From a virus, in the IMG/VR virus record IMGVR_UViG_3300031521_000080, positions 1 through 56,548 of that record: a stretch of 56,548 nucleotides of DNA. One strand, written 5' to 3'. The translations under genes were made by a program, and so were the position numbers. Below, piece after piece: positions 39,413-56,080 of the stretch (its first letter is position 1; every line of letters starts with the position of its first letter). The notes under the pieces are model-generated. The model searched no databases. It saw nothing but the letters and a program-made list of their open reading frames with translations, and was not told where the DNA came from.

Positions 39413-40471
39413 TCAGCCCGGCGTAACATCGCTGACATAAACGAACTGTTCCGGCCTCGTGATGACCGGCAGGAGGTTCCACTCCAGCAGGTACTGACGG
39501 GCCGACGGGTCCTTGTCCTTCCACGTCTTGGCGAACTTGCCGGTGTAGCCGTCCGGGGCCTCGTCGTCGGCGGTGGGGCCGATGAAGAGTTCGATGGGGC
39601 GGTTCTCGGTGAAGTTGCCGATCAGCAGGGCGTCGTCAGCGAAGAAGCGCTGTTCGGCAGCCGGGATGGTCGGGTTGGCGGTGTAAGCAGCGCCGACGCC
39701 GTCGTACACAGCCTCCTGCGGCTTCCAGTTCAGGCCCATGAAGCCCGGGAGGATGCCGTTCTGGTAGTACTGGTCCTTCATCCGGTCGGAGAGCAGGATG
39801 CCACCGGCAGTGCCGGGGGAAGCCGCGCCCGTGTTGGCGAAGGCGTTGAAGATGTACGTCATGGTCTTCTCCGTGGCGTACGCATCGACAGCCGGGACCC
39901 GACCGTCGCGGGTGATCAGCCGCTTGAGGGCGCGGATGTCCTCGACGATTGCTCCCGGGGTGGCAGTGGCCCACGAGCCCGCAACCGACGCCTTGTGCGA
40001 CGGGAGGAACTTGTAGTCCACGGTCGCCTGAACGTCCGGGTAGTCGAGGGTCAGGGTGCCCGTGCAGGCCTGCCAGATCAGGTACTCGGCGAAGTTGTCG
40101 AAGCGCTGGTTGAGGTCCTTGACCTCACGCAGCACCGACTCCTCAGCGCGGGTGTTCGCCAGCTCGGAGACCGAGTTGGCCGACTGGCGCAGCCAGTGGA
40201 GCGTGGTGGGCTCGAAGACCTTCTTCTCGCGAAGGTAGACGAAGGCCGCGCTCTGGCTGGAGCGACCGAGGCGCGGCACGATGTGTGCTTCGCTGTTCGG
40301 GACGTTCGGGCGAGCGATGGCGCGGGAGCCACGGATGACTTCCCACTGCACCGTCGGGAACGGGTGGGGGGTCTGCGGGACGCGGCTGAGCATCTCCAGA
40401 GACTCAGGAGCGGTGAAGCGCTCGACGACACCACGGAGCACCGTGGGCTGGAGCAGAGAGATCTCGGGCAC
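39413..40471 (-). CDS. Major capsid protein (lambda E-like)
   Basis: 352 residues from GTG 40471 (VPEISLLQPTVLRG), with AAAGGA 8 nt upstream; upstream codons are unlikely to be translated. The sequence has lambda gpE-family features: an N-terminal LSRVPQTPHPFPTVQWEVIRGSRAIARPNVP arm, a spine helix LREVKDLNQRFDNFAEYLIWQACTGTL, and a C-terminal ELFIGPTADDEAPDGYTGKFAKTWKDKDPSARQYLLEWNLLPVI. It lies directly after a gpD-like decoration gene, as in lambda. Confidence 0.92.
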   Translation of the reverse strand: MPEISLLQPTVLRGVVERFTAPESLEMLSRVPQTPHPFPTVQWEVIRGSRAIARPNVPNSEAHIVPRLGRSSQSAAFVYLREKKVFEPTTLHWLRQSANSVSELANTRAEESVLREVKDLNQRFDNFAEYLIWQACTGTLTLDYPDVQATVDYKFLPSHKASVAGSWATATPGAIVEDIRALKRLITRDGRVPAVDAYATEKTMTYIFNAFANTGAASPGTAGGILLSDRMKDQYYQNGILPGFMGLNWKPQEAVYDGVGAAYTANPTIPAAEQRFFADDALLIGNFTENRPIELFIGPTADDEAPDGYTGKFAKTWKDKDPSARQYLLEWNLLPVITRPEQFVYVSDVTPG

Positions 40472-40667
40472 TGAAGTTGTCCTTTCGTCGCGCCAGAGTG
40501 GTTTCTGGGAAGTCAGCGACACCGGCTTAGGTGCCCGATCTGCGGCCCGGATTGGTTACCGGTCACTTGCCTGATCTGGATTGAGTTGGCCTTCCGAGCT
40601 ACTCAGGATCAGGAAGGGCCGGGGGCCCTTCCATCACCTCAGAATCCCGACCGGGAGAGGTCCTTGC
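40472..40667 (-). promoter_or_regulatory. Intergenic region upstream of the major capsid gene
   Basis: 196 nt without a gene. It holds the strong hairpin at 40612-40632, a palindrome copy at 40501-40512 (8 of 10) and the capsid ribosome site. A promoter for high-level capsid expression would be expected between the hairpin and the gene, but no clear -35/-10 is seen. Confidence 0.4.
40612..40632 (-). terminator. Hairpin between decoration and capsid genes
   Basis: A perfect 9-bp stem (GGAAGGGCC with GGCCCTTCC) and 3-nt loop, without a clear U-tract. It fits an actinobacterial-type terminator or an mRNA-stabilising element. Confidence 0.55.
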
Positions 40668-41102: not shown

Positions 41103-41627
41103 CTACGAGCGGACGTACGCGGCGGTCTGCTTGTCGGCGACCGCGCTGAGGCGAGCGATCTCGTCCTCCACGGTCTTGTCGTGCGCGTCGTCGGTGGTCT
41201 CGACGCCACCCTCTGCGGAGAGCTTGACGAGCGGCTTCTCCGGGAGGACCTTGTCGAACAGCTCGGCGTTGGAGAGCTTCAGCTCGACCATGGCCTCACG
41301 GTTCTTCGGGAGGATGTGGCCGGAGAGGACCAGTGCCTCGACTGCGGCTTCGGCGGCGCTCTTGGCGGAAGCCTCGACCAGCGTGTCGACCTTGGCGGTC
41401 AGCGCGACGATCTTGTTCCCGGCTTCTGCGACGGCACCGATGAGGACCTCAGCAGAGACCGTCTCGTCGGTGTTGCTCAGGGTCAGGAGGCCGGTACCGA
41501 CCAGCTCTTCCTGAATCTTGTTGCTCAGTGCGACAGACGCATCTGCCAGCGCGGCCTTCTCCTGAAGGGCGGTCACGTCGATGCCGTGGTCGGCCTTGAG
41601 AGCGGCGAGCGTCTCTTCCAGAGTCAT
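41103..41627 (-). CDS. Nested scaffold protein (internal start)
   Basis: 174 residues from an in-frame ATG at 41627 (MTLEETLAALKADHGIDVTA), preceded by GAGGAG with 6-nt spacing, an unusually good site inside a gene. This matches the lambda C/Nu3 arrangement, where the scaffold is the C-terminal part of the protease gene made from its own start. A GGCCGATCTT copy is 48 nt upstream. Confidence 0.65.
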   Translation of the reverse strand: MTLEETLAALKADHGIDVTALQEKAALADASVALSNKIQEELVGTGLLTLSNTDETVSAEVLIGAVAEAGNKIVALTAKVDTLVEASAKSAAEAAVEALVLSGHILPKNREAMVELKLSNAELFDKVLPEKPLVKLSAEGGVETTDDAHDKTVEDEIARLSAVADKQTAAYVRS

Positions 41628-42194
41628 GAAGTTCTCCTCGTTGTCTGCCGGAGTAAGCACCAGCACCTGCTTATCAAGATCGGCCCCACCGCGCGAGGCA
41701 GCGATGACCTCCTCGAAACCCTTGAGATTGGTCACATAGGGCCGGTTGGTGATGGCGGTGTGCAGGAGGGTCGGACCCACCCGTTCGCCGCTCGTGGTGT
41801 CCATGTAGTCGAGGTGGAGCATGGCGGAAGCCCCCAGCAGGGTCTTGCCCACCTTGTCCGCATCGTCGGTACGGACGTCGATGTCGACGTAGACGCCATC
41901 GTCGGCCTTGTAGAGCCTGATGACTTCACCGATGTTCCGGTCGGGATCCTCGGTGTGCTCGTTGTCGCCGTTCACCTTGGGGACCTGAACGATGTCGGCC
42001 ACGCCTGCGGCGAAGTTGGCGATGAGGGTGTCGGCGAACTTCTGGTCGACCTGCACCGAGCCGCCCTTGACGCCGGGGTACTTCAGCTGTCCGAAGTGCA
42101 GGATCTGCTTTCGGAAAACACGCCCTGAGGCGGTGTGGGACAGCTCGACGAAGCGGTCACCCCTCGGCCCCGGTACGACTACGAACTGATCCAT
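41103..42194 (-). CDS. Capsid maturation protease with scaffold domain (Mu I-like)
   Basis: 363 residues. The first about 180 match Mu I-type/head proteases: VRRT-free N-terminus MDQFVVVPGPRGDRFVELSHTASG, VNGDNEHTEDPDRNIGEVIRLY, LLGASAMLHLDYMDTTSGERVGPTLLHTAITNRPYV. The C-terminal part is a helical, Ala/Glu-rich scaffold. An internal start at 41627 probably makes the scaffold alone. The ATG at 42194 has no good ribosome site; GATCTT stands 7 nt before it. Confidence 0.83.
   Translation of the reverse strand: MDQFVVVPGPRGDRFVELSHTASGRVFRKQILHFGQLKYPGVKGGSVQVDQKFADTLIANFAAGVADIVQVPKVNGDNEHTEDPDRNIGEVIRLYKADDGVYVDIDVRTDDADKVGKTLLGASAMLHLDYMDTTSGERVGPTLLHTAITNRPYVTNLKGFEEVIAASRGGADLDKQVLVLTPADNEENFMTLEETLAALKADHGIDVTALQEKAALADASVALSNKIQEELVGTGLLTLSNTDETVSAEVLIGAVAEAGNKIVALTAKVDTLVEASAKSAAEAAVEALVLSGHILPKNREAMVELKLSNAELFDKVLPEKPLVKLSAEGGVETTDDAHDKTVEDEIARLSAVADKQTAAYVRS
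41676..41685 (-). promoter_or_regulatory. GGCCGATCTT element, site 4 (scaffold start)
   Basis: Exact 10-mer inside the protease coding sequence, 48 nt before the internal scaffold ATG. GAGGTCATCGCTGCCT is 10 nt upstream, as at site 3. Confidence 0.5.
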
Positions 42195-42590: not shown

Positions 42591-43043
42591 CTAGTCCTCT
42601 TCGGTATCAACAAAGGTACCATAACTTGGGACATCTCCGCTATAGTCCGCTGCTCCCGAGAGAGGTCCCCTCTGGTCCGGACCCATGGCCACCTCGTCGG
42701 TCGGGTCGAAGGTCTTGATGTACTCCTCCAGTGTGGTGAACGCCCACGACGCTGTGACCCCCACGGCCTTGGCGTGCTCGGGGTACTTGCCCAGTCGGAC
42801 AGAGACCGCCCCGTCGTGCAGGGGACGGACGTCGAAGCCGTTCTCCCAGTCGGTCCACGCCAGCCCCATGGGGAGCCCGTGGGAGGTGATCGCACGCCAC
42901 GTGCCCTGCTTGGTGCGGTCGAGCCCGTCGTAGCGCTCAGCGCCCTTGCGGACCAGCTCGAACGGCTGCTGCATGGCCTCGATCATGGCCATCTGCTCGG
43001 GCGTCGGCTGGGTGTTCGGGCCGGGTGGGGCCATGCTGCTCAT
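42591..43043 (-). CDS. Hypothetical 150-residue protein
   Basis: ATG 43043 is preferred because AGGAG lies 6 nt upstream; the GTG at 43067 that overlaps the giant gene lacks a ribosome site. The N-terminus is Pro/Met-rich (MSSMAPPGPNTQPTPEQMAM). The middle has GTWRAITSHGLPMGLAWTDWENGFDVRPLHDGAVSVRLG. The acidic C-terminus is DTEED. Function unknown. Confidence 0.65.
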   Translation of the reverse strand: MSSMAPPGPNTQPTPEQMAMIEAMQQPFELVRKGAERYDGLDRTKQGTWRAITSHGLPMGLAWTDWENGFDVRPLHDGAVSVRLGKYPEHAKAVGVTASWAFTTLEEYIKTFDPTDEVAMGPDQRGPLSGAADYSGDVPSYGTFVDTEED

Positions 43044-43063
43044 CGGTGCTCCTGTCTGCACTG

Positions 43064-46000
43064 TCACTTCGTTGATACGCCGACCGAAGCGTATTTCGCC
43101 ATCAGGGCCTCGTACTCCGCCTTCAGCTTCTCCGCTGCAATCATCGCCGGAGACTCCTTCGGCAGCTTCTGAGCCTTGTAGAGGGCCATGGCAGCCTCGT
43201 AGTCGGCCTTCATCTCGTTGGCCTTCTTCATCCCGTTCATGGCCGCAGCCTGCGGGCTGTTGGGCTCGACGATGTTGTGGCTGTCCGGGTCTCCCTCGAA
43301 GTAGTTCATGTAGGGGTAGACCTCCGGGGGAATCAGAGACGCCATCACCTTGTAGGAACCGTTGTAAGGCACGACGTCCCAGATATACATGGCCAGACCG
43401 GGCTCCATGATCATGCCGTTTTCCCCGGTGTTGTTGTGGTTCCCACTACCTGCCCCTGTGTAGACACCCTTCATCTCCGGAGGCACCACGAGGTCGACGT
43501 AGACGTTGTAAAACTTGACGACCTGACCTCCGTGGTCCATCGAGCCGGGAACGATCTCCATGGCCCCGTGATCCTTCTGGATGGATCCGATCATGGACCT
43601 GAGATCGTCACCTTCCTTGAACCGGCTGCCATCGTTCCGCACGAACCGGTCGAAGGAGACCGTCCGGGAAGCCCGGAAGGCCTCGCCCACAGGACCAGCC
43701 TCATCTGCGGCCTGCTTGCAGCCTTCCCAGACATCCATCTTGGCTGAGTAGGGGTCGGTCTTGGCCTGCTCAGCGATGTCTGCCTTCTTGAAGCCCAGCT
43801 TGGCGGGCATCTTCCGGAGGTAGGTCTGCCAGTTGGAAGCGTTCTTCTGGGTGTCCAGTCCCTTCTGGGCCTTCGGGGACAACGTCTTGAGGATGCCTCC
43901 CCACTTCGCCTTGCAGTACTTGTCGGACTCATCTGCCGACATCGCCAGCACGCTGGGATCGTCGTGGTGCAGTGGGGTGTAGAAGGCGTGTCCATTGGCC
44001 TGTAGCCACTCGGTGTGCTTGGCCTCGTACTCGGCCTTCTGCACCTCGTAGGCGTGGATGGTCTCGGAGTAACTGGCCTTCAGCTTGTCGATGGAGGCCT
44101 GAATCTCCTCGTAGAGCGCAGGCTCGTCGCCGAAGTAGCCCTTGGTCTTGATGTGGTCCAGCTGGGCCTGATCCCCGTGCATGGCCTGATTGATCGGGTT
44201 CCACGCAGTGGAGGAGTCCTTCAATGCCTTGGGGTCGAGAACGGGAGAGTGCTTCGCCCGGTAGGCGGCATAGGCCTTCTCCGCCCGCTCCATGAAGTCA
44301 GGCGACAGATCGAGTGGGGTTGGGCCTGCACTGTCACCGACGCTCACAGGGGCCTTGGGAGCCACGGGAGCGGGCTTGCCATACATCGGGCTGTCCGGGT
44401 TGCCCTCGCTCATGGAGACGCCCTTGGGGAGGCCTGTGGAGGAGTCCCAGACCACCTTGGGTGCGGCCTTGCCAAGGCTCTTGGAGTCCAGCGTCGAGTA
44501 GACCAGCTTGCCGTCCGAGCCCCAGAGCTGGTTGCCCTTGTCGTCCAGACGGACGATCTTGACCTTGCCGGTCACCTTGTTTATCGAAACGACCTTGGCC
44601 TTGTTGGAGAGTCCACCCTTGTTGAACTTCACGACCGTGACGTCGTCGCCGACGGCGAGCACGGAGCCCTTGTGGTCCTTGACCCCATCGATGTTGGCGT
44701 CGATGACCGTGGCTGGGTTGCTCGGGTCGACCGGCTTCCAGCTGTGCGTGTTCCCCAGCACCGTCTGCTCGGTGATGTGGTCGGGCTGGTCGTAGTTGTA
44801 GCCGGACGGGTAGGCCCAGCTCATGGTTCCGTCGGGGTGCTTGACCGCGTAGATCTTGCCGGTCATGTCCACCGCGATGACCTTGGAGCCCTCCGGGGGC
44901 GCAAGGTAGTTGTCAGGCAGCAAGCTCTTCTTCGGGGCCGACATCGGCAGGTCGTAGCCGTCGTACAGCGACCAGCTCTTCTCGTACTTGGCCGTGTTCG
45001 CGAGGTTCTTGGCCTCCACGTCGCCGTCCCCGGGCAGCTCATAGGTGCTGCCGTCGGCGTAGAAGTAGGAGACCTTGCCGTCGGCCCCCATCACTGCATG
45101 AACATCTCCGGAGGCTCCGGAGTACATGGCGATGTACTTCGATCCCGGTGCGGGCTGGGTGTAACCAGCGGGCAGCTTATCGGGGGCCTTGATCACATCG
45201 GCCTTGGGGCTGTCGAGGATCTCGTTGGGCTTCTCGAACATGACCCAGCCGTCGGTGGTCTTCTCGATCATCCGCTTGGTCGCACCAGCTTCTCCGGCGT
45301 CCATGACGGCTCCGGAGGGGTTGTAGTACCAGATCTTGCCCTTCCACTCCACGGCGTAGGCGGGGCTGGGGGAGACCGTCTTGGCCACGATGGTGGCGTT
45401 GGCCGGGAGCTTCTTGAAGCCATCCGGCAGCTCGGTCATGGGCGGCAGCTTCTTGGAGACGCCGGGCTCGGGCTTGTCGTAGGGATCCCAGTTGTCGGAC
45501 TTCTCCTCGAAGACGGAGGGGTAGGCCAGCGCAGCCTGCACCTTGCCGTCGGGGAAGTAGTAGTGGGCGGTGTTGTCGGCGTGGCGGACCACGAAGTTGC
45601 CGTTGCTGGTGTGCTTGGCGAGGATCCGAGCGCCTTCGGGCATCGGGGCGTAGCCGTCGGGCATGGTGGCCGGTGCCGGGTTGCCTGCGGCTGCCGGAGC
45701 GTCCGGGGTGCCAGTGGGGACCGGGTGGTAGCTGCTGTCAGGGGCGGCGAACCAGTCCTTCATGACTGCATTCATGGAGTCGCCGTTGGGGTGCGTGAGA
45801 CCGTTGGGGTTGAACTCGCTGACGTGGACCACGTCGCCGTTGGCCTTGAGCACCGAGACAGTGGTCTCGTCCTCGTTGTAGTACATCTGGTCCCCCGCCT
45901 CGGGGACGTAGGTGGACACGAACGGCAGAGCGGGCAGGTCGGGAGCCTTGGGGGCGTCCTCCACCGGAGTGAAGCTGCTCTTCGGATCCGCGATCCACTC

Positions 46001-49000
46001 CTTGATGCTCTTGGCCGTCTCACTCTGTGCGCCGTACATGTCGCCGTTGGGCTGGTTTGCAGAAACCTGCACCACCTGCCCCTTGGCCTCGACGATGGTG
46101 ATGGACGACTGGTCAGAGTTGTAGTAGAGCTTGTCCCCCGCAGCCAGCTGGTACGTCGGGGTGAAGCTGAGCCCCTCGGGGTAGCTGGGGATCGGCTCCG
46201 GCGCGGCAGCAGGAGCCTCGTCGAAGGAGTCCCACATCGCCTTGTGGTCCTTGATGAAGGCCGTGTCAATGCCCCCAGCATGAAAGACCGTCCCCGACTC
46301 GGAGCCATTGTTCGGCCCGTAGTGGTAGTCGACGCTGTCCCCATTGGTCACCGCGTAGATGTCCGCGCCCTTGTACTTGGCGAGAATCTTCTCTCCAGCA
46401 GGAACCGGCTTGTAACCATCCGGCAGTGCAGTGGGGACCCTGTTGCTGCCCAGCGGCTCGGGAGCCTTCACGACGTGGGTCTTGTCCGCGAAGCCGTGGG
46501 TGCCGTCGGCGTAGTCCAGCTCCACCAGTCCACTGGAGGGGTCAGCGCTGAGCACGACAGCGTCCTTGAACTTCTCGGTCTCGGGGTTGGAGACGCTGAC
46601 CTTCTCCCCCACCGTGTAGACCTTGTCGTTGCTGGAGAAGGCGTAGGTCTCACCAGCGGGGATCGTGAACGGAGCATCCTGCACCGACAGCTCGTCGTTG
46701 AGGTAGGCCCCGTAGACGCCGGGGGAGGTCTCGCCGTAGGAGATCTCGTTGTTGGAGCCGGTGATGGTGAACTTCTCGCCGGTCTGCTTGAGCTGGGCGA
46801 CCTCGCCCTTCTTGAAGGCTCCCTGTCCCTTGCTGTGGGCCTGAATGGTGGCCACCGCGTTCACGGCGGCGTTGGGGGTCTCGTCCTTGATCCCGAACCG
46901 GTCGAGGATCTTGGCGCGGCGCTCCACCAGCGTGTCGTACAACTCAGCCTTCTCGGCGTCGCTGAACCCGGAGGAGTGGACGATGGTGTGGATCTGGTCC
47001 GGGGTGATGTTCAGCAGCTTCTTGGCGGACTCACCCACAGCCTCGTCATCCATCGACCCGAAGACCTGAGGCAGCTTGGAGTAGCCGGGGGACTTGGTCG
47101 ATCCGTTGCGCATGTCGTCGATGTCGGTGGGGTCTCCACTCCACCAGTCCTTCTTGCCACCCGTGGCGCGGTACCCCATCGCACCCCCCGGGTCGATGCG
47201 GAGGGGCTTGCCATCCTTGTCAGCAACGAGATTCCACGGGCCCATCCCGGCCACGTCGTAGTTGCCCAGCCATGCGTCGATGGCGAAGTCTTCCTGCACC
47301 TTGGCGAGGAACGCCTTGCCGGTGGGGCCCTGTCCGACCATTGCCTTGGGCAGTGCCTTGCCGTCGTTCTCGATCCACGGACTCACGAGATAACGGTCGC
47401 TCTTGTTCCCATCCTTGCCCAAGGCGACCTCGTTGGCATTGACCTCGAAGTGGTGATAGAAGGCGGAAGCCACAACCTCGTTGTGCATGTGCCCGGGAGT
47501 GCCCTTCTTGACATAGAACTTCTTGCCGCTCTCGTCGAGGTAGACGCCTCCGGGGTTCGACCCTCCGATGTCTCCGGCGATCTTCGTCCAGCCAGAGATG
47601 TCGTACTTGGGTTCCGCAAGGTTGTCGGGGCCCATCTTGCTGTAGGCAGCGGTGGGGACGGTCATGTCGCCGGTCTCGAACCCGGCCAGCTTGGCGAGGT
47701 TGCCGTGAGACAGCGCGGCGTGCAGGGCCCCTGTGGACTCCAGTGCAGTCAGCTCCTCAGCGGAGAACCACTGGTACTCCTTCAGCTCCCAGTCCTCAGT
47801 GAAGGAGGGGGCTGTGATGTCCTGCACCTGACCGAGGTCGGTGACGATGGTGGAGTAGGTCCAGTCCTTGTCGGTGCCGGAGATCTTGCCGATCACGGCC
47901 TTGTTTTCACTAACGAGCTTGAGGTTGCTCAGGATGCCTTCGCCACCGTGGATCTCCTCGGAGAACTCGCGCATCGCACCCTGAAGGCCGGTCTCGTTCT
48001 GGTCGATGGCACCACCGGGGAGGTACCACTCATCCCGGTCGCCACGCTTGCCCACGAGGACCTTCTTGACGCCATTGTCCATGGCCGTGACCACGACACC
48101 ACCAGCGCCGTACTTGCCCCACGAAGGCTTCGGCTCACTGCCGTCGACCGGGTGGATCATGACGTGCCCATCACCGGGGAGGCCACGCTGTTCCTCAGGC
48201 AGGATGGACTTGGACAGGTCGACGGACCCGGGGGTGTCGTTGACCTTGGTCGTGACCTCCACGGTGTTGGACCAGTCCATCAGGTCCTTCTCCCACTGCG
48301 GGATCTCGGCATCAGGCACGTTGGCCTTGGCCGCGAGGTACTCCTCCGCACCGGCCTGCGCTGCCCCAGCGGAGGGGTAGTGGTTGTCGTGGTTGTCGTG
48401 CTCGACGTGGTAGCCGTTCAGGAACGGGGAGAAGCTGTAGCCGTCTGCACCACCGTTGTTGATGATCCAGATCGAGTGCTCGCTGCCGTTGATCTCGGTC
48501 GCGCTCTTGGACACGACGTAGCTGGGCAGGTGCTCGGAAGGCTTCGGCTGCACCCACGTCACGGGGTAGGCCTGCACGGAAGGACCGTCGAGGACCGCAG
48601 CCACGTTCTCATCGAGAGCTGTGTTGGTCACGTCAGCATCGAGGGTGACCAGATCGTTCGGGCCGAAGGCGAACCCTGCGCCTGCTCCGTCGTCGTACTT
48701 GAAGTGCGGCTTCCCGCCCGGCTCGTTGTTGTAGGAGTTGAAGTGGATCGTGCCGTGGTAGCTGACCGGACCCTTGGACTCCATCCGGGTCATCGTCCCG
48801 GCCTTGCCATGGAAGGACTTGGGGTAGTTGGCCAAGTCCTTCGCCGTGAGGGATGCCGGGAGCTTGGAGTCGCTGACCTCTGCCAGTGCCTGCTTGGCCT
48901 CGTCGGCGTAGGCGCTCTTGTTTCCAGAATCGGTGTCGCTGTTGACCTTGGGCCGGGTCAGCGTGGAGAAGTTGGTGTACTTGACCCCGATGCCGTTGCC

Positions 49001-52000
49001 GTTCTCGTCGTAGGCGTCGTACCAGACCTCGTTCTCGGGGATGCCGTAGTAGCCGGGCTCCCGGCCTTCCATCTGCTCGATCAGCATCTGCTTGAGCATG
49101 GCCTTGTTGCGGCGCTTGTCGTGCTGGCGAGCAGCGAACCCGAAGTTGGACTTGTGCTTCTCGTCATGCGAGCGGCCCACCTTGTAGTAGGCGGCGATGC
49201 CGAGAGCGACGTTCATGTCCTGAAGGGCGCTGCCGCGCATGGCCATGACCCGCTTCAGGATCTTGTCAGCCTTGTTCTGGTCGTCCTCGGTCATCACGTC
49301 CATGCTGTCGAGCACCGCGAGGGCGGTCTTGATGTCCGCGACGGTGACCTCCAGCGACTCCGGGCCCATCTTGTCGGCCTCGGATGAGGGCAAGCCGTTC
49401 TTGTTGGCGAACCTGCCGACGGTGACCTTGGTCTTGAAGTCCTTCAGTTCGAGGTCATCGGGGATCAGCGCGGAGCCCGGATCGGTGAACTGGAGCCCCA
49501 GCTTCTCCGCTGCGAAGCGGATCATGGCGGGCTTGTGGCGCGCAGGCATCCCGGGCTTGCTGTACTCCTTGATGGCCATCTTGGACATCTGCTTGCGCAG
49601 GGAGGCGGACTTGAAGGGGCTGTTGGAGGGGAGCAGGTCGGTGTTGTAGTACGAGCCCTGCATGGCGCGGGAGTAGATCTGGGCGTCGATGAAGGTACGC
49701 AGATCCTTTTCGGAAACGAGAGGTCCACCATCCCACAGCGGGATGTCGGCGACGGTGCTCCAGTCGCCGCTGTCCATCAGCTCCTTGTCGGAAGCATCCG
49801 GCAGCTGGGTGATGTCTCCGAAGTGCACACGACCGTCGTAGATGGCTTGGAAGATGGACGCGTTGTTCTCGCCCAGAGCGTTGTAGCCCGCACCCTTCTT
49901 GCCCACGAGGAACATGAAGCCTGCGGAGTCCTTGTTGTCGTCGGTGCGGGTCAGCACCACGGCGGTCGGCTGGCCACCGTTCTTGGACGACGGGATCGTC
50001 ATCGTGATCTGATCCCCGGCCTTCATCGCCTTCAGGTGCTTGTAGTCGGCGATCTTGTCGCCGACCGTGTAGTCCTCGACCTTGGTGATGGCGGGTACGT
50101 CGGGCTCATTGAGGACGACGTCGTCCTTCGGGACCTCCAGCACGGAGATCTGCCCGCTGGCGACGGAGGACTTCAGGGTCCAGTAGTCGAAGGAGTGGGC
50201 GCTGCCATCCTTCTTGAGCTTCCCGTCGGGGTACACCACATAGACCGACTCGGCAGTGCCATCGGGCTTGGGCTTCTTGAACTTGTAGCGGAGCTTGGTG
50301 CCGACCTTCTGTGCGAGCAGGTCACCGAGACGCTTGATGGCCTCCCCGGGCTTCCAGTTCTTCTTGGGCTCATCGCCCGCCAGCTCCTGATTGGGGACGT
50401 GCCACCACGTGGTTCCGGGAGTTTCCACCGATGCCAGAATGCTGGCATCGTCCATCTTCCAGACCAGTCCGTCGTTCTCCAGCGTCCATGTGCCGTCAGA
50501 GTTCTTGGTCCCGGTCATGGCGCTGTCCTTGAACGCGAGAGAGTCTCCCACCTGCACCAGCTTGAGGTCCTCAGCAGAGGAGATCTGCCGGGTGGCCCCG
50601 AGAGGGTGGTCCGGGGTGGGTGTCGGGCTGACCACGGCGGAGTCGTCATCCTTGACGTCTGCGGGGTCGAAGTAGTCCGGAGCCACAGGGCCCATGGCGG
50701 TGGTCCACTTGCCTTCCCGGTCCTTCACACCGATCAGGCCGTTGCTGGACTGGACGGAGGCACCCTCGGGCGCGCTGGCAGTCCACGTCTCCGTGGCGAC
50801 GTCGCCGGGGACCGGGTCAGGCTTGGGGTTCTTGTTCTTGCTGTTGCCCTTGAACGGGTGGATCTGGAAGCCGAACTCCATGGTCTCCGCGAACTCGGTG
50901 AGAGGGGCAGGCATGGGATCCCCGCCCTCGGAGATCGAGTGCGCGTAGCCGTCCTTGCCGACGTTCCACAGGGAGTTGTGCTCCGGGTCGTCTGGGTGGC
51001 TCAGCAGGAACTTGTCTCCGGGCTTGGCCTCCAAGATCTGGGACCGGCTCACGGCCTGCTGCGGGAAATCGGGCAGCCCCGGCGCGATGCCGTGGGTGTC
51101 CATGTCGCCCTTGGTCCAGTAGTCCTTCATGTTCGGGTCGGTGTTCACTCCAGACTCACCGACCACCGGCTCGACCGGAGCGGGAGCTGCCTCCTTGGGG
51201 GCGCGCTTCTTGCCACCCTTGGCAGCCTTCAGCTCGGAGAGGCGCTTCTCCCCTTCCGGGCTGATGTAGCCGAACTCGGCCTGTCCTGCTTCGAGGTCGG
51301 CGATGGTCGCGGAGATCTCGTCGGGAGTCATCTCTGCCGGGGGCAGGTTGGTGGTGTCCCGCTTGGAGACGTGGTCCTCAGGGGCAGGCTCGGGCATGTT
51401 CGCAGCGACGTGAGCGAGAGCCTCCTCGCGCGTCTTGAAGACGTTGTCATTTCCAGAAACGTCCTCGACGGAGTACTCGAAGCTGTCGGTCTGGCGGTTG
51501 CGGCGGGCCCAGACCTTCTGGCCACCGATCTCGGTGGAGGCGAGGCCCAGAGCGTTCTTGCGGGCCTCCTTCTCCAGCCCAGCGAGCTGCTTGTCGTGCT
51601 CCGGGTTCGTCTCGGGGGCGTTGGGCTTCGGGGTCAGGGCATCCGCGACATCGGGGTTGGCGTCGAGGTACTTCTCCCACGAGTCGACCATGGCCTGATG
51701 GTCCGGGTTGTTCGAGTCCAGCGGGCCGTCGTTGAGGGTGTTCAGCACTGAAGCGGCCTGCGTGGTCGCCAGCTCCTTGTTGGTGGACTTCTTGGGCTCG
51801 GCAGGCTTCTTGGGCTCGGCAGGCTTCTTGGGCTCGGCAGGCTTCTTGGGCTCGGCAGGCTTCGCGGCTGTCTTCTCACCGTCGATGCCGTTGGCCGCGA
51901 TGTCGGTGGAGACCGCCTTGTCCGTGGCGTTCTTCTTGCGCGCGGAAGCGCCGTCGACCTTCGGCGCAGGGGTGCTGGCGTAGTCCGTGCCCTTGGGGTT

Positions 52001-53026
52001 GCCGAAGTAGTCGGGGGCGGGGGGCGTGCCCTCGTCGGGAGCAGGCTTCTTGCCGGGGGTCGGGTTCGGCTTCGGAGTCTTCAGGTCCTCCAGCTGCGCC
52101 TGAAGCGCGGCCATCTGGTCCTCGATCTCCTTGATCTTCTTCTGCTGGGCGTGGGTGTCGGGGTCGTTGACCTCGGTCCAGCGGTCCTTGATGTCGGAGT
52201 TCTGCTTGTGGAGCTGGTCCTCCAGCGCCTTCAGGGTGGTCTCGTCCATCCCGGTGGCCTTCAGGCCGCTGACCACCTTGGCGATGTACTTGTCGTCGAG
52301 GTAGTCAGGAACGTCCTTGTAGGACGGGAACTGGGCGTAGTCAGTGGTATCCGCCGTGTCGGGCGCGTTGGGGTCTGGAGACCCTGCTGAGGGCTTCCCA
52401 GCATCCCCTGCGGGAGCACCGAGTTCCTCAGAGCTGAACTCGGAGTCGTTCGGGCCGATGTCGTCGAGTCGGGCGTTCAGGACGTGCTCGGACTCACCGG
52501 AGATGTCGCTGGCGGTGCCGTTGGAGGTGATCAGCACCAGATCGTAGTTGGGGTCCCGGACCACTGCGAAGCCATCCGGGTTCTTCTTGGGCCGGAAGAC
52601 CTTGGAACCGGAGGGGAAGTTGAACGTGGCTCCGCCGACGCTGACCTTCTGGTCTCCCTTGGGGGTGACCATCTTCGGACTGTCGGACTCGGGCAGGGTG
52701 AGGGCCTTGGTGAGGGCCTCGATGGACGGCTTGGAGGCGGCGGAGCTGGGAGCGTTCGTCGAGGAACCGTTCCCGGTGGCGCTGTCCTCGGGGGCGACCA
52801 TGCCCGGGTGCCTGATCGCAGCGCGCTTGACCGCATCCAGTGTGATCGGTGCACCGATGGGCAGGCCGTACTTGCGGGAGCCTTCAGGGGTGCGGACGTA
52901 CCGAGTCTTGCTTCCCCGAGCTGCGAGGGTGACCTTTCGGGCCAGCTCCAAGATCAGCGGGTCGCCAGTTGTGCCGGTCAATGTGGTTGTCCTCAGCAGA
53001 GAGATTCTGAAAGCACTGGAAGTCAC
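43064..53026 (-). CDS. Giant multi-enzyme virion protein (Nudix, kinase-like, ART-like)
   Basis: 3320 residues from GTG 53026 (overlaps upstream stop as GTGA; a TTG at codon 17 with GAGGA is an alternative). The N-terminal tag is RYVRTPEGSRKYGLPIGAPI (about 42-61). A Pro/Lys linker follows with AEPKKP repeats (about 390-413). A Nudix box GAIDQNE...REFSEE spans 1672-1691. A kinase-like domain (Lys1840; DAWLGNYD, Asp1924, Asn1932, RIDPGG Asp1945) has the D-N-D layout of HipA/PI3K-like folds. Five LPxGY repeats span 2200-2750. An ADP-ribosyltransferase-like C-terminus has Arg3121, GAGSGNHNN and GENGMIMEPG. It lies downstream of portal and MuF, so it is probably packed in the head and ejected with DNA. 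Confidence 0.8.
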   Translation of the reverse strand: MTSSAFRISLLRTTTLTGTTGDPLILELARKVTLAARGSKTRYVRTPEGSRKYGLPIGAPITLDAVKRAAIRHPGMVAPEDSATGNGSSTNAPSSAASKPSIEALTKALTLPESDSPKMVTPKGDQKVSVGGATFNFPSGSKVFRPKKNPDGFAVVRDPNYDLVLITSNGTASDISGESEHVLNARLDDIGPNDSEFSSEELGAPAGDAGKPSAGSPDPNAPDTADTTDYAQFPSYKDVPDYLDDKYIAKVVSGLKATGMDETTLKALEDQLHKQNSDIKDRWTEVNDPDTHAQQKKIKEIEDQMAALQAQLEDLKTPKPNPTPGKKPAPDEGTPPAPDYFGNPKGTDYASTPAPKVDGASARKKNATDKAVSTDIAANGIDGEKTAAKPAEPKKPAEPKKPAEPKKPAEPKKSTNKELATTQAASVLNTLNDGPLDSNNPDHQAMVDSWEKYLDANPDVADALTPKPNAPETNPEHDKQLAGLEKEARKNALGLASTEIGGQKVWARRNRQTDSFEYSVEDVSGNDNVFKTREEALAHVAANMPEPAPEDHVSKRDTTNLPPAEMTPDEISATIADLEAGQAEFGYISPEGEKRLSELKAAKGGKKRAPKEAAPAPVEPVVGESGVNTDPNMKDYWTKGDMDTHGIAPGLPDFPQQAVSRSQILEAKPGDKFLLSHPDDPEHNSLWNVGKDGYAHSISEGGDPMPAPLTEFAETMEFGFQIHPFKGNSKNKNPKPDPVPGDVATETWTASAPEGASVQSSNGLIGVKDREGKWTTAMGPVAPDYFDPADVKDDDSAVVSPTPTPDHPLGATRQISSAEDLKLVQVGDSLAFKDSAMTGTKNSDGTWTLENDGLVWKMDDASILASVETPGTTWWHVPNQELAGDEPKKNWKPGEAIKRLGDLLAQKVGTKLRYKFKKPKPDGTAESVYVVYPDGKLKKDGSAHSFDYWTLKSSVASGQISVLEVPKDDVVLNEPDVPAITKVEDYTVGDKIADYKHLKAMKAGDQITMTIPSSKNGGQPTAVVLTRTDDNKDSAGFMFLVGKKGAGYNALGENNASIFQAIYDGRVHFGDITQLPDASDKELMDSGDWSTVADIPLWDGGPLVSEKDLRTFIDAQIYSRAMQGSYYNTDLLPSNSPFKSASLRKQMSKMAIKEYSKPGMPARHKPAMIRFAAEKLGLQFTDPGSALIPDDLELKDFKTKVTVGRFANKNGLPSSEADKMGPESLEVTVADIKTALAVLDSMDVMTEDDQNKADKILKRVMAMRGSALQDMNVALGIAAYYKVGRSHDEKHKSNFGFAARQHDKRRNKAMLKQMLIEQMEGREPGYYGIPENEVWYDAYDENGNGIGVKYTNFSTLTRPKVNSDTDSGNKSAYADEAKQALAEVSDSKLPASLTAKDLANYPKSFHGKAGTMTRMESKGPVSYHGTIHFNSYNNEPGGKPHFKYDDGAGAGFAFGPNDLVTLDADVTNTALDENVAAVLDGPSVQAYPVTWVQPKPSEHLPSYVVSKSATEINGSEHSIWIINNGGADGYSFSPFLNGYHVEHDNHDNHYPSAGAAQAGAEEYLAAKANVPDAEIPQWEKDLMDWSNTVEVTTKVNDTPGSVDLSKSILPEEQRGLPGDGHVMIHPVDGSEPKPSWGKYGAGGVVVTAMDNGVKKVLVGKRGDRDEWYLPGGAIDQNETGLQGAMREFSEEIHGGEGILSNLKLVSENKAVIGKISGTDKDWTYSTIVTDLGQVQDITAPSFTEDWELKEYQWFSAEELTALESTGALHAALSHGNLAKLAGFETGDMTVPTAAYSKMGPDNLAEPKYDISGWTKIAGDIGGSNPGGVYLDESGKKFYVKKGTPGHMHNEVVASAFYHHFEVNANEVALGKDGNKSDRYLVSPWIENDGKALPKAMVGQGPTGKAFLAKVQEDFAIDAWLGNYDVAGMGPWNLVADKDGKPLRIDPGGAMGYRATGGKKDWWSGDPTDIDDMRNGSTKSPGYSKLPQVFGSMDDEAVGESAKKLLNITPDQIHTIVHSSGFSDAEKAELYDTLVERRAKILDRFGIKDETPNAAVNAVATIQAHSKGQGAFKKGEVAQLKQTGEKFTITGSNNEISYGETSPGVYGAYLNDELSVQDAPFTIPAGETYAFSSNDKVYTVGEKVSVSNPETEKFKDAVVLSADPSSGLVELDYADGTHGFADKTHVVKAPEPLGSNRVPTALPDGYKPVPAGEKILAKYKGADIYAVTNGDSVDYHYGPNNGSESGTVFHAGGIDTAFIKDHKAMWDSFDEAPAAAPEPIPSYPEGLSFTPTYQLAAGDKLYYNSDQSSITIVEAKGQVVQVSANQPNGDMYGAQSETAKSIKEWIADPKSSFTPVEDAPKAPDLPALPFVSTYVPEAGDQMYYNEDETTVSVLKANGDVVHVSEFNPNGLTHPNGDSMNAVMKDWFAAPDSSYHPVPTGTPDAPAAAGNPAPATMPDGYAPMPEGARILAKHTSNGNFVVRHADNTAHYYFPDGKVQAALAYPSVFEEKSDNWDPYDKPEPGVSKKLPPMTELPDGFKKLPANATIVAKTVSPSPAYAVEWKGKIWYYNPSGAVMDAGEAGATKRMIEKTTDGWVMFEKPNEILDSPKADVIKAPDKLPAGYTQPAPGSKYIAMYSGASGDVHAVMGADGKVSYFYADGSTYELPGDGDVEAKNLANTAKYEKSWSLYDGYDLPMSAPKKSLLPDNYLAPPEGSKVIAVDMTGKIYAVKHPDGTMSWAYPSGYNYDQPDHITEQTVLGNTHSWKPVDPSNPATVIDANIDGVKDHKGSVLAVGDDVTVVKFNKGGLSNKAKVVSINKVTGKVKIVRLDDKGNQLWGSDGKLVYSTLDSKSLGKAAPKVVWDSSTGLPKGVSMSEGNPDSPMYGKPAPVAPKAPVSVGDSAGPTPLDLSPDFMERAEKAYAAYRAKHSPVLDPKALKDSSTAWNPINQAMHGDQAQLDHIKTKGYFGDEPALYEEIQASIDKLKASYSETIHAYEVQKAEYEAKHTEWLQANGHAFYTPLHHDDPSVLAMSADESDKYCKAKWGGILKTLSPKAQKGLDTQKNASNWQTYLRKMPAKLGFKKADIAEQAKTDPYSAKMDVWEGCKQAADEAGPVGEAFRASRTVSFDRFVRNDGSRFKEGDDLRSMIGSIQKDHGAMEIVPGSMDHGGQVVKFYNVYVDLVVPPEMKGVYTGAGSGNHNNTGENGMIMEPGLAMYIWDVVPYNGSYKVMASLIPPEVYPYMNYFEGDPDSHNIVEPNSPQAAAMNGMKKANEMKADYEAAMALYKAQKLPKESPAMIAAEKLKAEYEALMAKYASVGVSTK
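43071..43081 (-). repeat. GGCGTATCAAC core repeat, copy 3
   Basis: The 11-nt core of the repeats at 5591 and 11191. Here it encodes part of the final GVSTK of the giant protein and lies 27 nt before the next start. Confidence 0.4.
44780..46426 (-). repeat. Five LPxGY-type protein repeats
   Basis: Within the giant protein, units begin LPDGYKPVPAGEKILAK, MPDGYAPMPEGARILAK, LPDGFKKLPANATIVAK, LPAGYTQPAPGSKYIAM and LPDNYLAPPEGSKVIAV. Each continues with a strand of the type YAV...DG...YYP-G. Two other longer repeats (YxxxAGDxxYYNxDxxxxxV) lie among them at about residues 2285-2420. Confidence 0.75.
51788..51859 (-). repeat. Four perfect 18-bp tandem repeats (AEPKKP)
   Basis: The 18-nt unit occurs four times in a row and encodes repeated Ala-Glu-Pro-Lys-Lys-Pro, a rigid extended linker in the N-terminal part of the giant protein. 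Confidence 0.9.
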
Positions 53027-53253
53027 TCCGTGTGAGAACCCGAAATCAGCTCCACACGCCTTAGAAGATCGGCCACGTCACCTTGGAGGGTGAGGCCCAT
53101 CTTCAGAATCCTGTTCGGGGAGAGCCCTGTGAAGCTGTAGACACACTCGGTGACCCGGGCATCTTCGAGCACCAGAAGGAGTCCTTCAGCGGCTCCGAGG
53201 TAGGTGTCGAAGGTGACCCGGACGGTCTCATGGGCCTGTGGAAGCTCACTCAT
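53023..53253 (-). CDS. 76-residue hypothetical protein
   Basis: ATG 53253 is chosen because GAGGAG lies 5 nt upstream. The product is beta-rich (ETVRVTFDTYLGAAEGLLLVLEDARVTECVYSF) with a C-terminal helix DVADLLRRVELI. It overlaps the MuF-like gene and the giant gene. Function unknown; it may assist the giant protein. Confidence 0.65.
   Translation of the reverse strand: MSELPQAHETVRVTFDTYLGAAEGLLLVLEDARVTECVYSFTGLSPNRILKMGLTLQGDVADLLRRVELISGSHTE
53065..53074 (-). promoter_or_regulatory. GGCCGATCTT element, site 6 (giant gene)
   Basis: Exact 10-mer 38 nt before the giant gene start, inside the end of the 76-residue gene. GGGCCTC lies 17 nt upstream, a weaker match to the second block seen at sites 1, 3 and 4. 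Confidence 0.42.
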
Positions 53254-54055
53254 CTGCACTCCTCAGCGTCCTGACCAGCTTCCGGAGCCAGTGGACGATC
53301 TTGACGAAGAAGCCGGGGCTCATCTTCTGGACCTCATCGGTGGACAACGTCTCCCGCTCAGAGGTGGTGCTGTCCTCGGTGGTCGAGTCGTTGTAGTTCT
53401 CCAGCCCCTCGATCAGGATCACCAGCCAGCACATGCACCGGGGGTGGCGCGGGGGGCCCTTCAGGTCCCCGTAGACCTTCAGCCGATTGTCGGAGGGGAA
53501 CTCCTCCCCGAGACCCACTTCCGTGCCCTCCAGTGCCCCACACAGCTCGCAGGGGACATGGTTGACGAAGTTGGCTCGCCACACCTTGCGCACGACGAAG
53601 CCGTAGGTGTCCACCAGCTCCCGGGCTCCTCGCAGGAGAGCATCGGTGTGACCTCTGCTGGCTGCCACTCCAGCGCTGTGGGCGATTCTGGAAACGAAGC
53701 GTGCTCGGGCGGCGTCGTCGTGGGGTCCGGCCTTGTACTCACGAAGGTTCTTGCGGACGTCCTCCAGTAGACCGTCGAGGTACGCCGAGCGCAGCACCTC
53801 GACCCTCATCCCGGTGGGCTTCCATCGGGGGACCCCGGCCTGTGCAGACAGGTGGGCAAGACCGACAGCTGCGGCGGAGCGGTAGGCGTCACGGATGATG
53901 GCCTCCATCGCCCAGCGCACGGACTGGTCGCTGTGCCTGCCGTCTACCCAATCCGCAAAGGCCTCTGCGATCCGCATCCGGACAGACACCTCCAGAGCCC
54001 TGATGGCTTGGTTGGTCTTCCGGGAAGCCTCGAACTGCTCCCCGAAGCTGGCCAT
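53246..54055 (-). CDS. MuF-like minor head protein
   Basis: 269 residues. The N-terminal three quarters are helical. The C-terminal signature C-ELC-GALEGTEVGLGEEF...GPPRHPRCMCWLVIL is the MuF motif, in which cysteines and His bind metal. It follows portal and the 116-residue gene. MuF/SPP1 gp7 proteins sit at the portal vertex inside the head and help DNA ejection. A basic helix ends the protein. Confidence 0.87.
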   Translation of the reverse strand: MASFGEQFEASRKTNQAIRALEVSVRMRIAEAFADWVDGRHSDQSVRWAMEAIIRDAYRSAAAVGLAHLSAQAGVPRWKPTGMRVEVLRSAYLDGLLEDVRKNLREYKAGPHDDAARARFVSRIAHSAGVAASRGHTDALLRGARELVDTYGFVVRKVWRANFVNHVPCELCGALEGTEVGLGEEFPSDNRLKVYGDLKGPPRHPRCMCWLVILIEGLENYNDSTTEDSTTSERETLSTDEVQKMSPGFFVKIVHWLRKLVRTLRSADE

Positions 54056-54405
54056 CAGGACTTCAGGCTCTGCTTGTCTATCGCCATGTCCGACCGTCCC
54101 CGGGACCCGACCAGCGCGCTGAGGACGTCGGTCAGCTGGCCGTTGGTGGCTGCGTAGTCCTTCACCGCGATGGTGAACTCTTCCTGCACGGAGCGCATCT
54201 GAGAGAGGTTGCCAGTCTTCTTGGCCACTGCGAACTGGCGCTGGAGGCTGGTCAGCCGGGTGAGGGAGGTAGCCCGCTTGGCAGCCTTCATGTTGGGGTC
54301 GTAGCGGTTGCCGATCTCGCCTCCGACCGGGAGGCCGAAGAACCGGGCCCCCTCGGTGGTGCGTACCCGGCGAACTCCCACTGCCGGGGTGGGTGCGTCA
54401 GCCAT
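54055..54405 (-). CDS. Small head-associated protein with shared N-terminal motif
   Basis: 116 residues. Residues about 12-34 read RRVRTTEGARFFGLPVGGEI, matching the giant protein's RYVRTPEGSRKYGLPIGAPI at most positions. The rest is helical (AAKRATSLTRLTSLQRQFAVAKK, MRSVQEEFTIAVKDYAA). It lies between portal and MuF, overlapping both by a few bases. Function unknown; a capsid-internal protein is likely. Confidence 0.72.
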   Translation of the reverse strand: MADAPTPAVGVRRVRTTEGARFFGLPVGGEIGNRYDPNMKAAKRATSLTRLTSLQRQFAVAKKTGNLSQMRSVQEEFTIAVKDYAATNGQLTDVLSALVGSRGRSDMAIDKQSLKS

Positions 54406-56080
54406 CGCTGTAGTCCTCTCCTGCGATCCCTACCATCTGGAGCGCCCAGTCGAACATGTCATCGGTGATGCCAGACAGCTTCACCGTCTTCTTCGCCTTG
54501 AGGGCTGGGTCAGCGGGGGGCGGTGTGGAGGATCCTGCGCCAGCGGCCTTGTCTGCCTTCTTGGCCATGATTCCCAAAACGTCGGTCAGGTCCTGTGCGC
54601 CACCCAGCTCGGCATTGGTGACATCTCCGGGTGCTCCGGCGATTCCTGCCAGTGCAGGATCGGGTGCGGCTCCCGGCAGGGGCTGACCATCGGGGCCGAC
54701 TCCACCGCCAGCGAACTGGGCTGCTGCTACGGCCTTCTCCTCTGCCTCCCGGGCCTCGACCAGCTCCCAGTCGATCTCCAGCCCCATCTCCTTGGCCTGC
54801 GTCTTCTCCAGCTCGCGCATGAACTCCTCGGAGACGTTCATGGACTGCCCGGAGGTGGCGAGCTTGTCGAAGGTGGCTGCGATGGCCGAGCGCTGCTCGT
54901 CGGTGAAGGTGCCCCACGTGAAGGTCGGGTACTTGCCACCGTCGAAGTTGTAATCGATCAGCTGGGGGATGATGTAGTGGTTGATCTGGTTGGCGACGTC
55001 GTCCATGATCGCCCGCAGCATCAAGACGAACATGTCGTCACCGGGGGTGGCGAAGTTCACCAATGAGCCGGACTCACCGGAGCCACCGCCCGTGTCGGCG
55101 TCGAAGAAGGCCGCTAGGATCGACTCGCTCATCATGTGGTTGTGGTGGTTGATGAGGTTCAGGAAGTCGAAGGTCCCGCCCTCCTTCAGCACCTCAACCT
55201 TGAAGCCCTCGGGCATCATCATCCACTGGGCCAGCGCGAGGCTGCTCAGGTTCCGCGCGAACTCGGTCTTGGCGTTCTGGGAGGCATTCGGGGGGACGGT
55301 GCCGATCCGGGTGCCTACAGCTGCCCGCTGGGCTGCGAGGTGGGCAGTGAAGTAGGCCTTGGCCTTGGCGTCGTAGTGCGGGAACGCGGACTCGAAGAAG
55401 GAGACGCCGTAGAACTTGCGCTCGTCCTCCTGCGCGGAGTAGTAGAACGCGTACTCCGGCTCGATGAAGACGTCGGTGACCTTGCCACCGACGACAGCAC
55501 GCTGGCGGAGCCCGGCGAACCCACCGGTCTTGTCAGCCACGAAGGTCATCGTGTCGGAGGGACGGTAGGCCAGCTTCTTCAGGGTGTACTTGCCCTTGAG
55601 CGGACCCTTGGTGGGAACCCAGAACACTTTCTCGAAACAGGAGAAGCCCTCGAACAGGGCTCCCAGCATCTGGCCCATGAAGCGCTGGAAGGTGGTGGTC
55701 ATGCCCCCGTTGGCCGGAGCCGTCCGGAAGACGGCCTCCATGAACTCTCCTTCGGCCTCTCCGCCGTCTGCGGGCTTGAAGGTGGCCGACACCAGCGAGG
55801 CGCGGATCGGCAGCGTCAGGAGGCGGTACAGGGCTCGGGCGTGGCCGTCCAGACGGCGCATGGTGACGAGCTGGCGGGTGGTGGGGCGCGTGACGTTGTA
55901 CTCGTCCTTGAGCACCTCGTTGAGGTCCTCAGAGGGGGTCTTCTTCAGGCCCATGGCGACGGGGTTGAACGGGGTGGTGTACGCCAAGGAGGAGTCCACA
56001 CCCTGCTCGTAGCCCAACTCCGGGATCTCGGAGTACAGCTCGGACGGCTTCTTCTTGTCCTCTACAGCGGTACTAGACAC
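54398..56080 (-). CDS. Portal protein (Mu gp29/DUF935-like)
   Basis: 560 residues. The pattern fits portal proteins: RQLVTMRRLDGHARALYRLLTLPIRAS (early helix), FQRFMGQMLGALFEGFSCFEKVFW, RPSDTMTFVADKTGG, and a helical stem NHHNHMMSESILAAFFDADTGGGSGESGSLVNF. The tail is low complexity and Ala/Gly/Pro rich. It lies directly after the terminase and before MuF. The GTG at 56080 overlaps the terminase end by 8 nt. It forms the dodecameric DNA gate. Confidence 0.9.
   Translation of the reverse strand: MSSTAVEDKKKPSELYSEIPELGYEQGVDSSLAYTTPFNPVAMGLKKTPSEDLNEVLKDEYNVTRPTTRQLVTMRRLDGHARALYRLLTLPIRASLVSATFKPADGGEAEGEFMEAVFRTAPANGGMTTTFQRFMGQMLGALFEGFSCFEKVFWVPTKGPLKGKYTLKKLAYRPSDTMTFVADKTGGFAGLRQRAVVGGKVTDVFIEPEYAFYYSAQEDERKFYGVSFFESAFPHYDAKAKAYFTAHLAAQRAAVGTRIGTVPPNASQNAKTEFARNLSSLALAQWMMMPEGFKVEVLKEGGTFDFLNLINHHNHMMSESILAAFFDADTGGGSGESGSLVNFATPGDDMFVLMLRAIMDDVANQINHYIIPQLIDYNFDGGKYPTFTWGTFTDEQRSAIAATFDKLATSGQSMNVSEEFMRELEKTQAKEMGLEIDWELVEAREAEEKAVAAAQFAGGGVGPDGQPLPGAAPDPALAGIAGAPGDVTNAELGGAQDLTDVLGIMAKKADKAAGAGSSTPPPADPALKAKKTVKLSGITDDMFDWALQMVGIAGEDYSDG

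What the first reader, a model, noticed from the sequence alone, without database searches (positions are those of the whole stretch)
43064..53026. 3320-residue protein combining Nudix, kinase-like and ART-like domains
One gene takes 10 kb, 18 percent of the window, in the head-gene block right after portal and MuF. It joins a Nudix box (1672-1691), a D-N-D kinase-like domain (about 1820-2040), several repeat families and an ADP-ribosyltransferase-like C-terminus. T4 ejects the ART Alt with its DNA; this protein could deliver several activities at once, for example modifying host RNA polymerase, removing nucleotide signals or blocking defence. A protein of this size must also fit in, or thread through, the head and tail.
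Basis: partly seen in the sequence, partly recalled or inferred. Interest (0 to 1): 0.78.

Follow-up and report, generated by a model that had tools for sequence, protein, structure and literature searches.

The report
Giant phage-head Nudix–kinase effector protein
A phage encodes, next to its capsid genes, a 3,320-residue protein carrying a nucleotide-cleaving (Nudix) domain and a protein-kinase-fold domain; its relatives form a large, uncatalogued family of giant proteins that probably ride in the phage head and enter the bacterium with the DNA.

Summary
The gene is real: minus strand, 53026→43064, GTG, 3320 aa, 357 kDa, in the head block (portal, tag protein, MuF-like, small ORF, giant, small ORF, protease, capsid). 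Nudix confirmed (Pfam E 1e-10, box intact). Kinase-like confirmed: AlphaFold pLDDT 88, pTM 0.87; nearest solved structure CtkA, then protein and PI3 kinases; catalytic Lys, Glu, Asp, Asn, Asp conserved. Repeats confirmed. The C-terminus is only a distant ART relative: the glutamate invariant in 45/45 related ARTs is glycine, and its model was poor.

The protein is a chimera. Its N-half matches Magritte gp17 (48%), which lacks Nudix and kinase; its Nudix–kinase and C-terminal segments match another phage's 2622-aa protein (48%, 44%).

The kinase domain is in neither Pfam nor PHROGs, yet occurs in 438 viral stretches and 59 bacterial genome loci, mostly in giant proteins beside the portal. Of 107 non-redundant proteins, 42 carry an ART and 25 a Nudix in the same frame, in many orders. 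One is fused to MuF. A Yersinia phage relative, and its separate Nudix protein, are recorded as particle-associated. HopAG1-like effectors appear to share the trio.

Best reading: a polyvalent virion effector, injected with DNA. New variant of a known kind.

The parts
43064..53026 (-). giant gene, 3320 aa, 357 kDa, pI 5.2, GTG start at 53026
   Evidence: near-identical copies in IMG/VR contigs
52844..52906 (-). N-terminal tag motif 'RYVRTPEGSRKYGLPIGAPIT' (aa 41-61), shared with other giant head proteins and with the small protein between portal and MuF
   Evidence: no match in 3.5 million shuffled residues
48875..50809 (-). aa 740-1384, conserved core of the N-terminal head module shared with Magritte gp17 and other IMG/VR contigs; function unknown
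   Evidence: 48% identity, E 2e-171
47741..48097 (-). Nudix hydrolase domain (aa 1644-1761), box from aa 1671
   Evidence: PF00293 E 1.1e-10, 4e-14; family alignment
46850..47599 (-). kinase-fold domain (about aa 1810-2059): G-loop 1821-1827, K1840, E1850, D1924, N1932, D1945
44801..46462 (-). two interleaved repeat families (aa 2189-2742)
43322..43729 (-). distant ART-like domain (about aa 3100-3235), ExE changed to ENG (E3202, G3204)
   Evidence: structure model inconclusive
53023..53259 (-). small protein overlapping the giant's start, homologue of Magritte gp16
   Evidence: 48% identity over 66 aa, E 2e-19
53246..54055 (-). MuF-like head morphogenesis protein
   Evidence: PHROG head-morphogenesis matches to 1.3e-6
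54055..54405 (-). small protein between portal and MuF carrying the same N-terminal tag
54398..56080 (-). portal protein
   Evidence: phrog_113 E 9.5e-40; 63% to Magritte portal
41103..42194 (-). head maturation protease / scaffold
   Evidence: phrog_328 E 1.6e-7
39413..40522 (-). major capsid protein
   Evidence: phrog_29 E 3.6e-26

Best explanation
The protein is a polyvalent virion effector. Its N-terminal half (tag at 41-61 and lineage-specific core 740-1384) is inferred to hold it inside the head, and its C-terminal half is an exchangeable effector cassette: Nudix, CtkA/HipA-like kinase fold, repeats as spacers, and a degenerate ART-like domain. It is probably built into the procapsid next to the portal, threaded out with the DNA, perhaps after protease cleavage, and acts in the first minutes of infection. 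The Nudix domain cleaves an NDP-X compound and the kinase-fold domain modifies a host target. Because this kinase family keeps company with ARTs and Nudix hydrolases, the most likely arena is NAD+/ADP-ribose chemistry: dismantling an NAD-derived alarm signal or an ADP-ribose mark while the kinase disables a host protein. Shown: gene, domains, catalytic residues, chimeric origin, portal adjacency. Inferred: packaging, injection, substrate, timing.
For: Head block position. Portal upstream on the same strand in 32/32 kinase-giant records with a portal match, mostly 0.4-2.4 kb away. MuF domain in the same frame as kinase and ART in G034/L090. Yersinia phage fHe-Yen8-01: the kinase+ART protein gp129 and the separate Nudix protein gp131 are annotated 'particle associated'; a Yersinia phage paper uses near-identical wording for LC-MS/MS hits (PMC7316996). 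Chimera: N-half matches Magritte, C-half matches L106/L107. Kinase model pLDDT 88, pTM 0.87, Foldseek to CtkA E 5e-6, catalytic residues conserved. Linkage: 18/18 PF00293 matches in 55 records lie in the kinase frame or two genes downstream; 64/107 non-redundant proteins have an ART or Nudix partner. A Pseudomonas ART-kinase-Nudix protein beside a VRP3-family gene has the ART-N/Nudix-C layout published for the injected effector HopAG1.
Against: No virion proteomics for this phage. The Yersinia annotation was not traced to its own publication. 357 kDa is large to thread through a tail. The ART-like domain lacks its catalytic Glu. The N-terminal core has no known fold. Linkage counts include related phages, so events are fewer than sequences. 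No substrate is known.
Confidence: 0.72

Rival explanations
1. A mainly structural internal head protein (core or ejection scaffold). Enzyme-like domains are inherited baggage and the size reflects a packing role.
For: N-half core is conserved without a Nudix or kinase in Magritte, L007 and L011; ART-like domain degenerate; long repeat region.
Against: Nudix box and all kinase catalytic residues are kept while the rest drifts to about 48% identity. Enzyme domains are swapped between N-halves, which suits effectors.
Confidence: 0.13
2. Not a virion protein: made late, it acts inside the producing cell, for example modifying host or phage proteins during assembly, or blocking superinfecting phages.
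For: Late gene block; no proteomics for this phage.
Against: MuF fusion in L090; particle-associated annotation of a relative; constant place beside the portal.
Confidence: 0.1
3. A toxin that kills the host or poisons competitors (polymorphic-toxin logic), rather than a takeover or anti-defence factor.
For: Modular N/C exchange resembles polymorphic toxins; ARTs are common toxin domains; the trio occurs in bacterial proteins.
Against: No immunity gene was seen, though none was systematically sought; a lytic phage needs the host alive to replicate; the ART here is degenerate.
Confidence: 0.05

Closest known systems
Polyvalent proteins / effectors (Iyer et al. 2017, PMC5512222; 2022, PMC9503650)
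   Same: Very large multidomain phage proteins encoded beside virion genes, with ARTs, Nudix or kinases, predicted to be injected with DNA
   Different: The kinase is a different, uncatalogued family; the 2017 paper says R-S-E (Alt/VIP2) ARTs are absent from genuine polyvalent proteins, whereas these giants carry them repeatedly
Magritte gp17 (Microbacterium phage, OR553905)
   Same: Same slot and same N-half (48% over 645 aa), same tag
   Different: No Nudix or kinase; C-half unrelated, with a marginal GNAT match
Yersinia phage fHe-Yen8-01 gp129 + gp131
   Same: Kinase-fold domain plus ART, and a Nudix protein two genes downstream, both annotated particle associated
   Different: Nudix is a separate gene; ART matches PF03496; N-half unrelated
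T4 Alt
   Same: Head-packaged, injected enzyme (analogy)
   Different: Alt is an R-S-E ART; here the ART-like domain lacks the catalytic Glu and the live candidates are Nudix and kinase
HopAG1 (type III effector of Pseudomonas syringae)
   Same: Published ART + Nudix; a protein of matching layout found here has this kinase family between them (L137)
   Different: 715 aa, delivered by type III secretion into plants; identity of L137 with HopAG1 inferred from layout and neighbours
CtkA / HipA-like kinases
   Same: Best fold match (TM 0.57), D-N-D catalytic layout
   Different: No significant sequence match; extra residues between catalytic D and N

Membership tests
Nudix hydrolase | Nudix box and family profile | tested here: met
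   PF00293 E 1.1e-10; GGAIDQNE...REFSEE; short insertion after EE
Protein-kinase-like fold | two-lobed kinase fold | tested here: met
   AF2 pTM 0.87; Foldseek 266 PDB matches at E<=0.001, top CtkA
Protein-kinase-like fold | ATP-site Lys/Glu and catalytic D, N, D | tested here: met
   K1840, E1850, D1924, N1932, D1945, invariant or near-invariant in 49 sequences
HipA/CtkA family | family-level sequence match | tested here: not met
   HipA_2 best E 0.011 in 2 of 12 members, HipA_C 0.22 in one, none in the window protein; PDB profile search CtkA E 0.35
Polyvalent-protein kinase of Iyer 2017 | loss of C-lobe; conserved Gln in last N-lobe strand; insert between catalytic His and Asp | tested here: not met
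   C-lobe helices present; no such conserved Gln or His in A5; features as described in the text, their alignment not available
R-S-E ADP-ribosyltransferase (Alt/VIP2, PF03496) | family match | tested here: not met
   no PF03496 match in the near-identical record G044
R-S-E ADP-ribosyltransferase (Alt/VIP2, PF03496) | catalytic second Glu of ExE | tested here: not met
   ENG / EHG against E in 45/45
R-S-E ADP-ribosyltransferase (Alt/VIP2, PF03496) | ART fold | tested here: inconclusive
   hhalign E 4e-5, prob 70%, best of 40 shuffles 0.024; AF2 pLDDT 44
Polyvalent effector | several effector domains in one large chain | tested here: met
Polyvalent effector | encoded among virion genes | tested here: met
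Polyvalent effector | domain shuffling among relatives | tested here: met
Polyvalent effector | packaged and injected | not testable with these tools
   indirect only: MuF fusion, particle annotation in a relative

The most novel reading that the evidence does not exclude
Kinase fold, ART and Nudix form one chemical relay carried by phage heads and, in HopAG1-like proteins, by type III secretion. The ART attaches ADP-ribose to a target, the Nudix trims it to a phosphoribosyl mark that ADP-ribose erasers cannot remove (analogous to the SidE ART + phosphodiesterase pair, from memory), and the kinase-fold enzyme regulates or extends the mark. In this phage, where the ART is degenerate, the module would act on ADP-ribose made by the host or by another protein.
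Probability: 0.1. Interest if true: 0.9.

Novelty: new variant of a known kind. Interest (0 to 1): 0.66.

Why it matters
It brings to light a kinase-fold family absent from Pfam and PHROGs that marks hundreds of giant proteins beside phage portal genes, and shows that it is repeatedly joined to ARTs and Nudix hydrolases in phages and in what looks like the plant-pathogen effector HopAG1. That makes a testable claim: phages carry preassembled NAD/ADP-ribose and kinase effectors in their heads, built by swapping C-terminal cassettes onto a head-binding half. It would add an unrecognised set of early counter-defence or takeover enzymes, and it gives short domains that can be expressed and assayed.

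Tried and rejected
Megablast of the gene against named phages: no match. Whole-protein Pfam/PHROG scans saw only the Nudix. A first self-BLAST of the protein returned nothing; windowed BLAST then found the repeats. PDB sequence search with the kinase profiles gave only chance-level hits; the fold search was needed. The AF2 model of the C-terminus failed for lack of homologues, and a further scan with the C-terminal profile found only the same two relatives. Nudix substrate class could not be assigned: NCBIfam matches (RppH, MutT, NudE) are all far below cut-off, and the closest solved Nudix is RenU. Literature searches for this kinase or the trio in phage giants found nothing beyond the two Aravind-group papers; the library is open-access only. 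Considered and dropped: that the plus-strand 1790-aa frame inside the gene (44015-49387) is a gene; in GC-rich DNA with GC3 0.87 it is an antisense shadow. Also considered: T4-type protease sites near the N-terminus (ILE|L in two giants); not consistent in L106, so not claimed.

Full report
The gene. The finding is a single open frame on the minus strand, 53026 down to 43064, starting with GTG and encoding 3320 residues. Its third-position GC (0.87) equals that of the capsid gene and is even along its length. It overlaps the small upstream ORF 53023-53259 (homologue of Magritte gp16, E 2e-19) and the downstream ORF 42591-43067 by a few bases, and the predicted mass is 357 kDa. Two other IMG/VR contigs carry it at 99.9-100% identity in full length. 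The window is itself an IMG/VR virus record of 56,548 bases, linear, probably a fragment.

The place. Reading along transcription: portal (phrog_113, E 9.5e-40), a 116-aa protein, a MuF-like head protein, the small ORF, the giant, a 158-aa ORF, the head maturation protease, a 130-aa ORF and the major capsid protein. The nearest named phage is Microbacterium phage Magritte (portal 63% identical), whose 1991-aa gp17, annotated hypothetical, sits in the same slot.

A chimera of two modules. Residues 740-1384 match Magritte gp17 at 48% identity (E 2e-171) and 41-374 at 32%, but nothing significant after residue 1384 does. Two further unnamed giants (2134 and 1777 aa in IMG/VR) also share only this half, and their C-terminal parts resemble Magritte's. 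Conversely, a 2622-aa protein in another phage (L106/L107) matches residues 1602-2278 at 48% (E 1e-161) and 2693-3255 at 44% (E 1e-125), while its N-half is unrelated except for weak matches around the tag. The protein is therefore an N-terminal head module joined to an exchangeable C-terminal cassette.

A shared tag. The motif VRTPEGxxKYGLPIGxxI lies near the N-terminus of the giants and also in the small protein between portal and MuF of the same phages, including this window (54055-54405). The pattern has no match in 3.5 million shuffled residues. A 42-residue query finds it in 31 phage records, several of them ART proteins of Gordonia phages, though many at E near 0.1-1. A role in head targeting is an inference.

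Nudix. PF00293 matches 1644-1761 at E 1.1e-10 and the box keeps its acidic residues. Alignment with other Nudix domains from kinase giants shows one common subfamily, WGKYGAxG...PGGAxx...EE, plus others. The substrate cannot be read from the sequence.

Kinase fold. Residues about 1795-2059 belong to a family that hmmscan finds in neither PHROGs nor Pfam, apart from weak HipA_2/HipA_C hits in a few members. A 49-sequence alignment keeps the glycine loop GGSNPGG, K1840, E1850, D1924, N1932 and D1945-GG. The AlphaFold model is confident (pLDDT 87.6, pTM 0.87). Foldseek's best solved match is CtkA (E 5e-6, TM 0.57), followed by protein kinases and Vps34. The best viral matches are phage proteins, several annotated as ADP-ribosyltransferase, portal, PI3/4-kinase or Nudix.

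ART-like end. PF03496 does not match. A profile of the C-terminus from three sequences against 45 ARTs from related proteins gives E 4e-5 (prob 70%). Controls give 0.024 at best for 40 column shuffles, 0.41 reversed and 0.03 for the N-core. In that ART set the catalytic Arg and the second Glu of ExE are invariant (45/45); here the Glu position is Gly in all three sequences. The region is probably an ART descendant without ordinary transferase activity. The structure model was too poor to decide.

How widespread. A scan with the kinase profile confirmed 438 encoding stretches in viral contigs (80 kept) and 59 bacterial-genome loci. The non-redundant viral proteins range from 922 to 4965 aa within the fetched flanks, and open frames reach 7671 codons. 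After removing close copies, 107 proteins remain: ART in the same frame in 42 and nearby in 7 more, Nudix in the same frame in 25 and nearby in 11 more, at least one partner in 64, both in 21. The order varies (KIN-ART, NUDIX-KIN, KIN-NUDIX, ART-KIN-NUDIX, NUDIX-KIN-ART, KIN-ART-NUDIX-NUDIX), so the association was made repeatedly. In whole records, every one of 18 PF00293 matches in 55 records lies either in the kinase frame (11) or two genes downstream of it (7). Phages within a group are related, so independent events are fewer.

Virion evidence. A weak but consistent portal match lies upstream, on the same strand, in all 32 records where one is found, mostly 0.4-2.4 kb from the giant's start. 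In G034/L090 a MuF domain (E 1.3e-21), the kinase domain and an ART are in one 2168-aa frame. In Yersinia phage fHe-Yen8-01 the kinase+ART protein and the Nudix protein are annotated as particle associated; a Yersinia phage paper uses 'phage particle-associated proteins' for LC-MS/MS results (PMC7316996), but the source for this record was not found.

Outside phages. In Pseudomonas cerasi and relatives a 555-755 aa protein has (ART-)KIN-NUDIX. In P. cerasi it lies beside a GH5 cellulase-family gene and a VRP3-family gene. Published work reports that the type III effector HopAG1 has an N-terminal ART and a C-terminal Nudix; the word kinase does not occur in that paper (PMC9963460). The layout and neighbours suggest this protein is HopAG1 (the neighbour names hopAH1/hopAI1 are from memory). 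If so, the domain between its two known parts is this kinase family, and the cassette is used by two different injection machines.

Interpretation. The most economical account is a polyvalent virion effector (Iyer et al. 2017; 2022): packaged, injected and acting early. The kinase is not the polyvalent-protein kinase of that paper, whose stated features (lost C-lobe, conserved Gln, His-Asp insert) are not met. R-S-E ARTs, said there to be absent from genuine polyvalent proteins, are common in these giants. The NAD/ADP-ribose theme follows from the partners, not from any assay; it is the weakest step.

Noticed in passing
IMGVR_UViG_3300034082_002161 (L030, G002), about 2416 to 27000 of the contig: A 7671-codon open frame in a 30.9 kb phage contig with a kinase-fold domain, two Nudix and three ART domains; related contigs have frames of 6546, 5212 and 5184 codons. 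Among the longest phage proteins if real.
   Followed up: partly
54055-54405 and 52844-52906: The same short tag (VRTxEGxxxxGLPxG) at the N-terminus of two different head-block proteins of one phage; also in several Gordonia phage ART proteins. Candidate head-targeting signal.
   Followed up: partly
14729-17482 (-): Helicase frame with an apparent intein inserted at the Walker A motif (TMG ... VTHNSGKT), by eye from the translation.
   Followed up: no
37842-38399 (-): Frame with VEVVTEGVELVEVL-type acidic repeats and a short collagen-like GPRGIPGPPGPMGN stretch.
   Followed up: no
5604-6083, 10107-10766, 38529-39374 (-): Three ORFs that look like HNH-type endonucleases (by eye).
   Followed up: no
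L137, L139, L149 (Pseudomonas genomes): ART-kinase-Nudix or kinase-Nudix proteins, in L137 beside a VRP3-family gene: probably HopAG1, with a kinase-fold domain between its published ART and Nudix parts.
   Followed up: partly
L118 (Kibdelosporangium), L134 (Actinocatenispora), L151-L170 (MAGs): Giant kinase-fold proteins of 2000-4500 aa inside bacterial genome contigs, some perhaps prophages; many without ART or Nudix.
   Followed up: no
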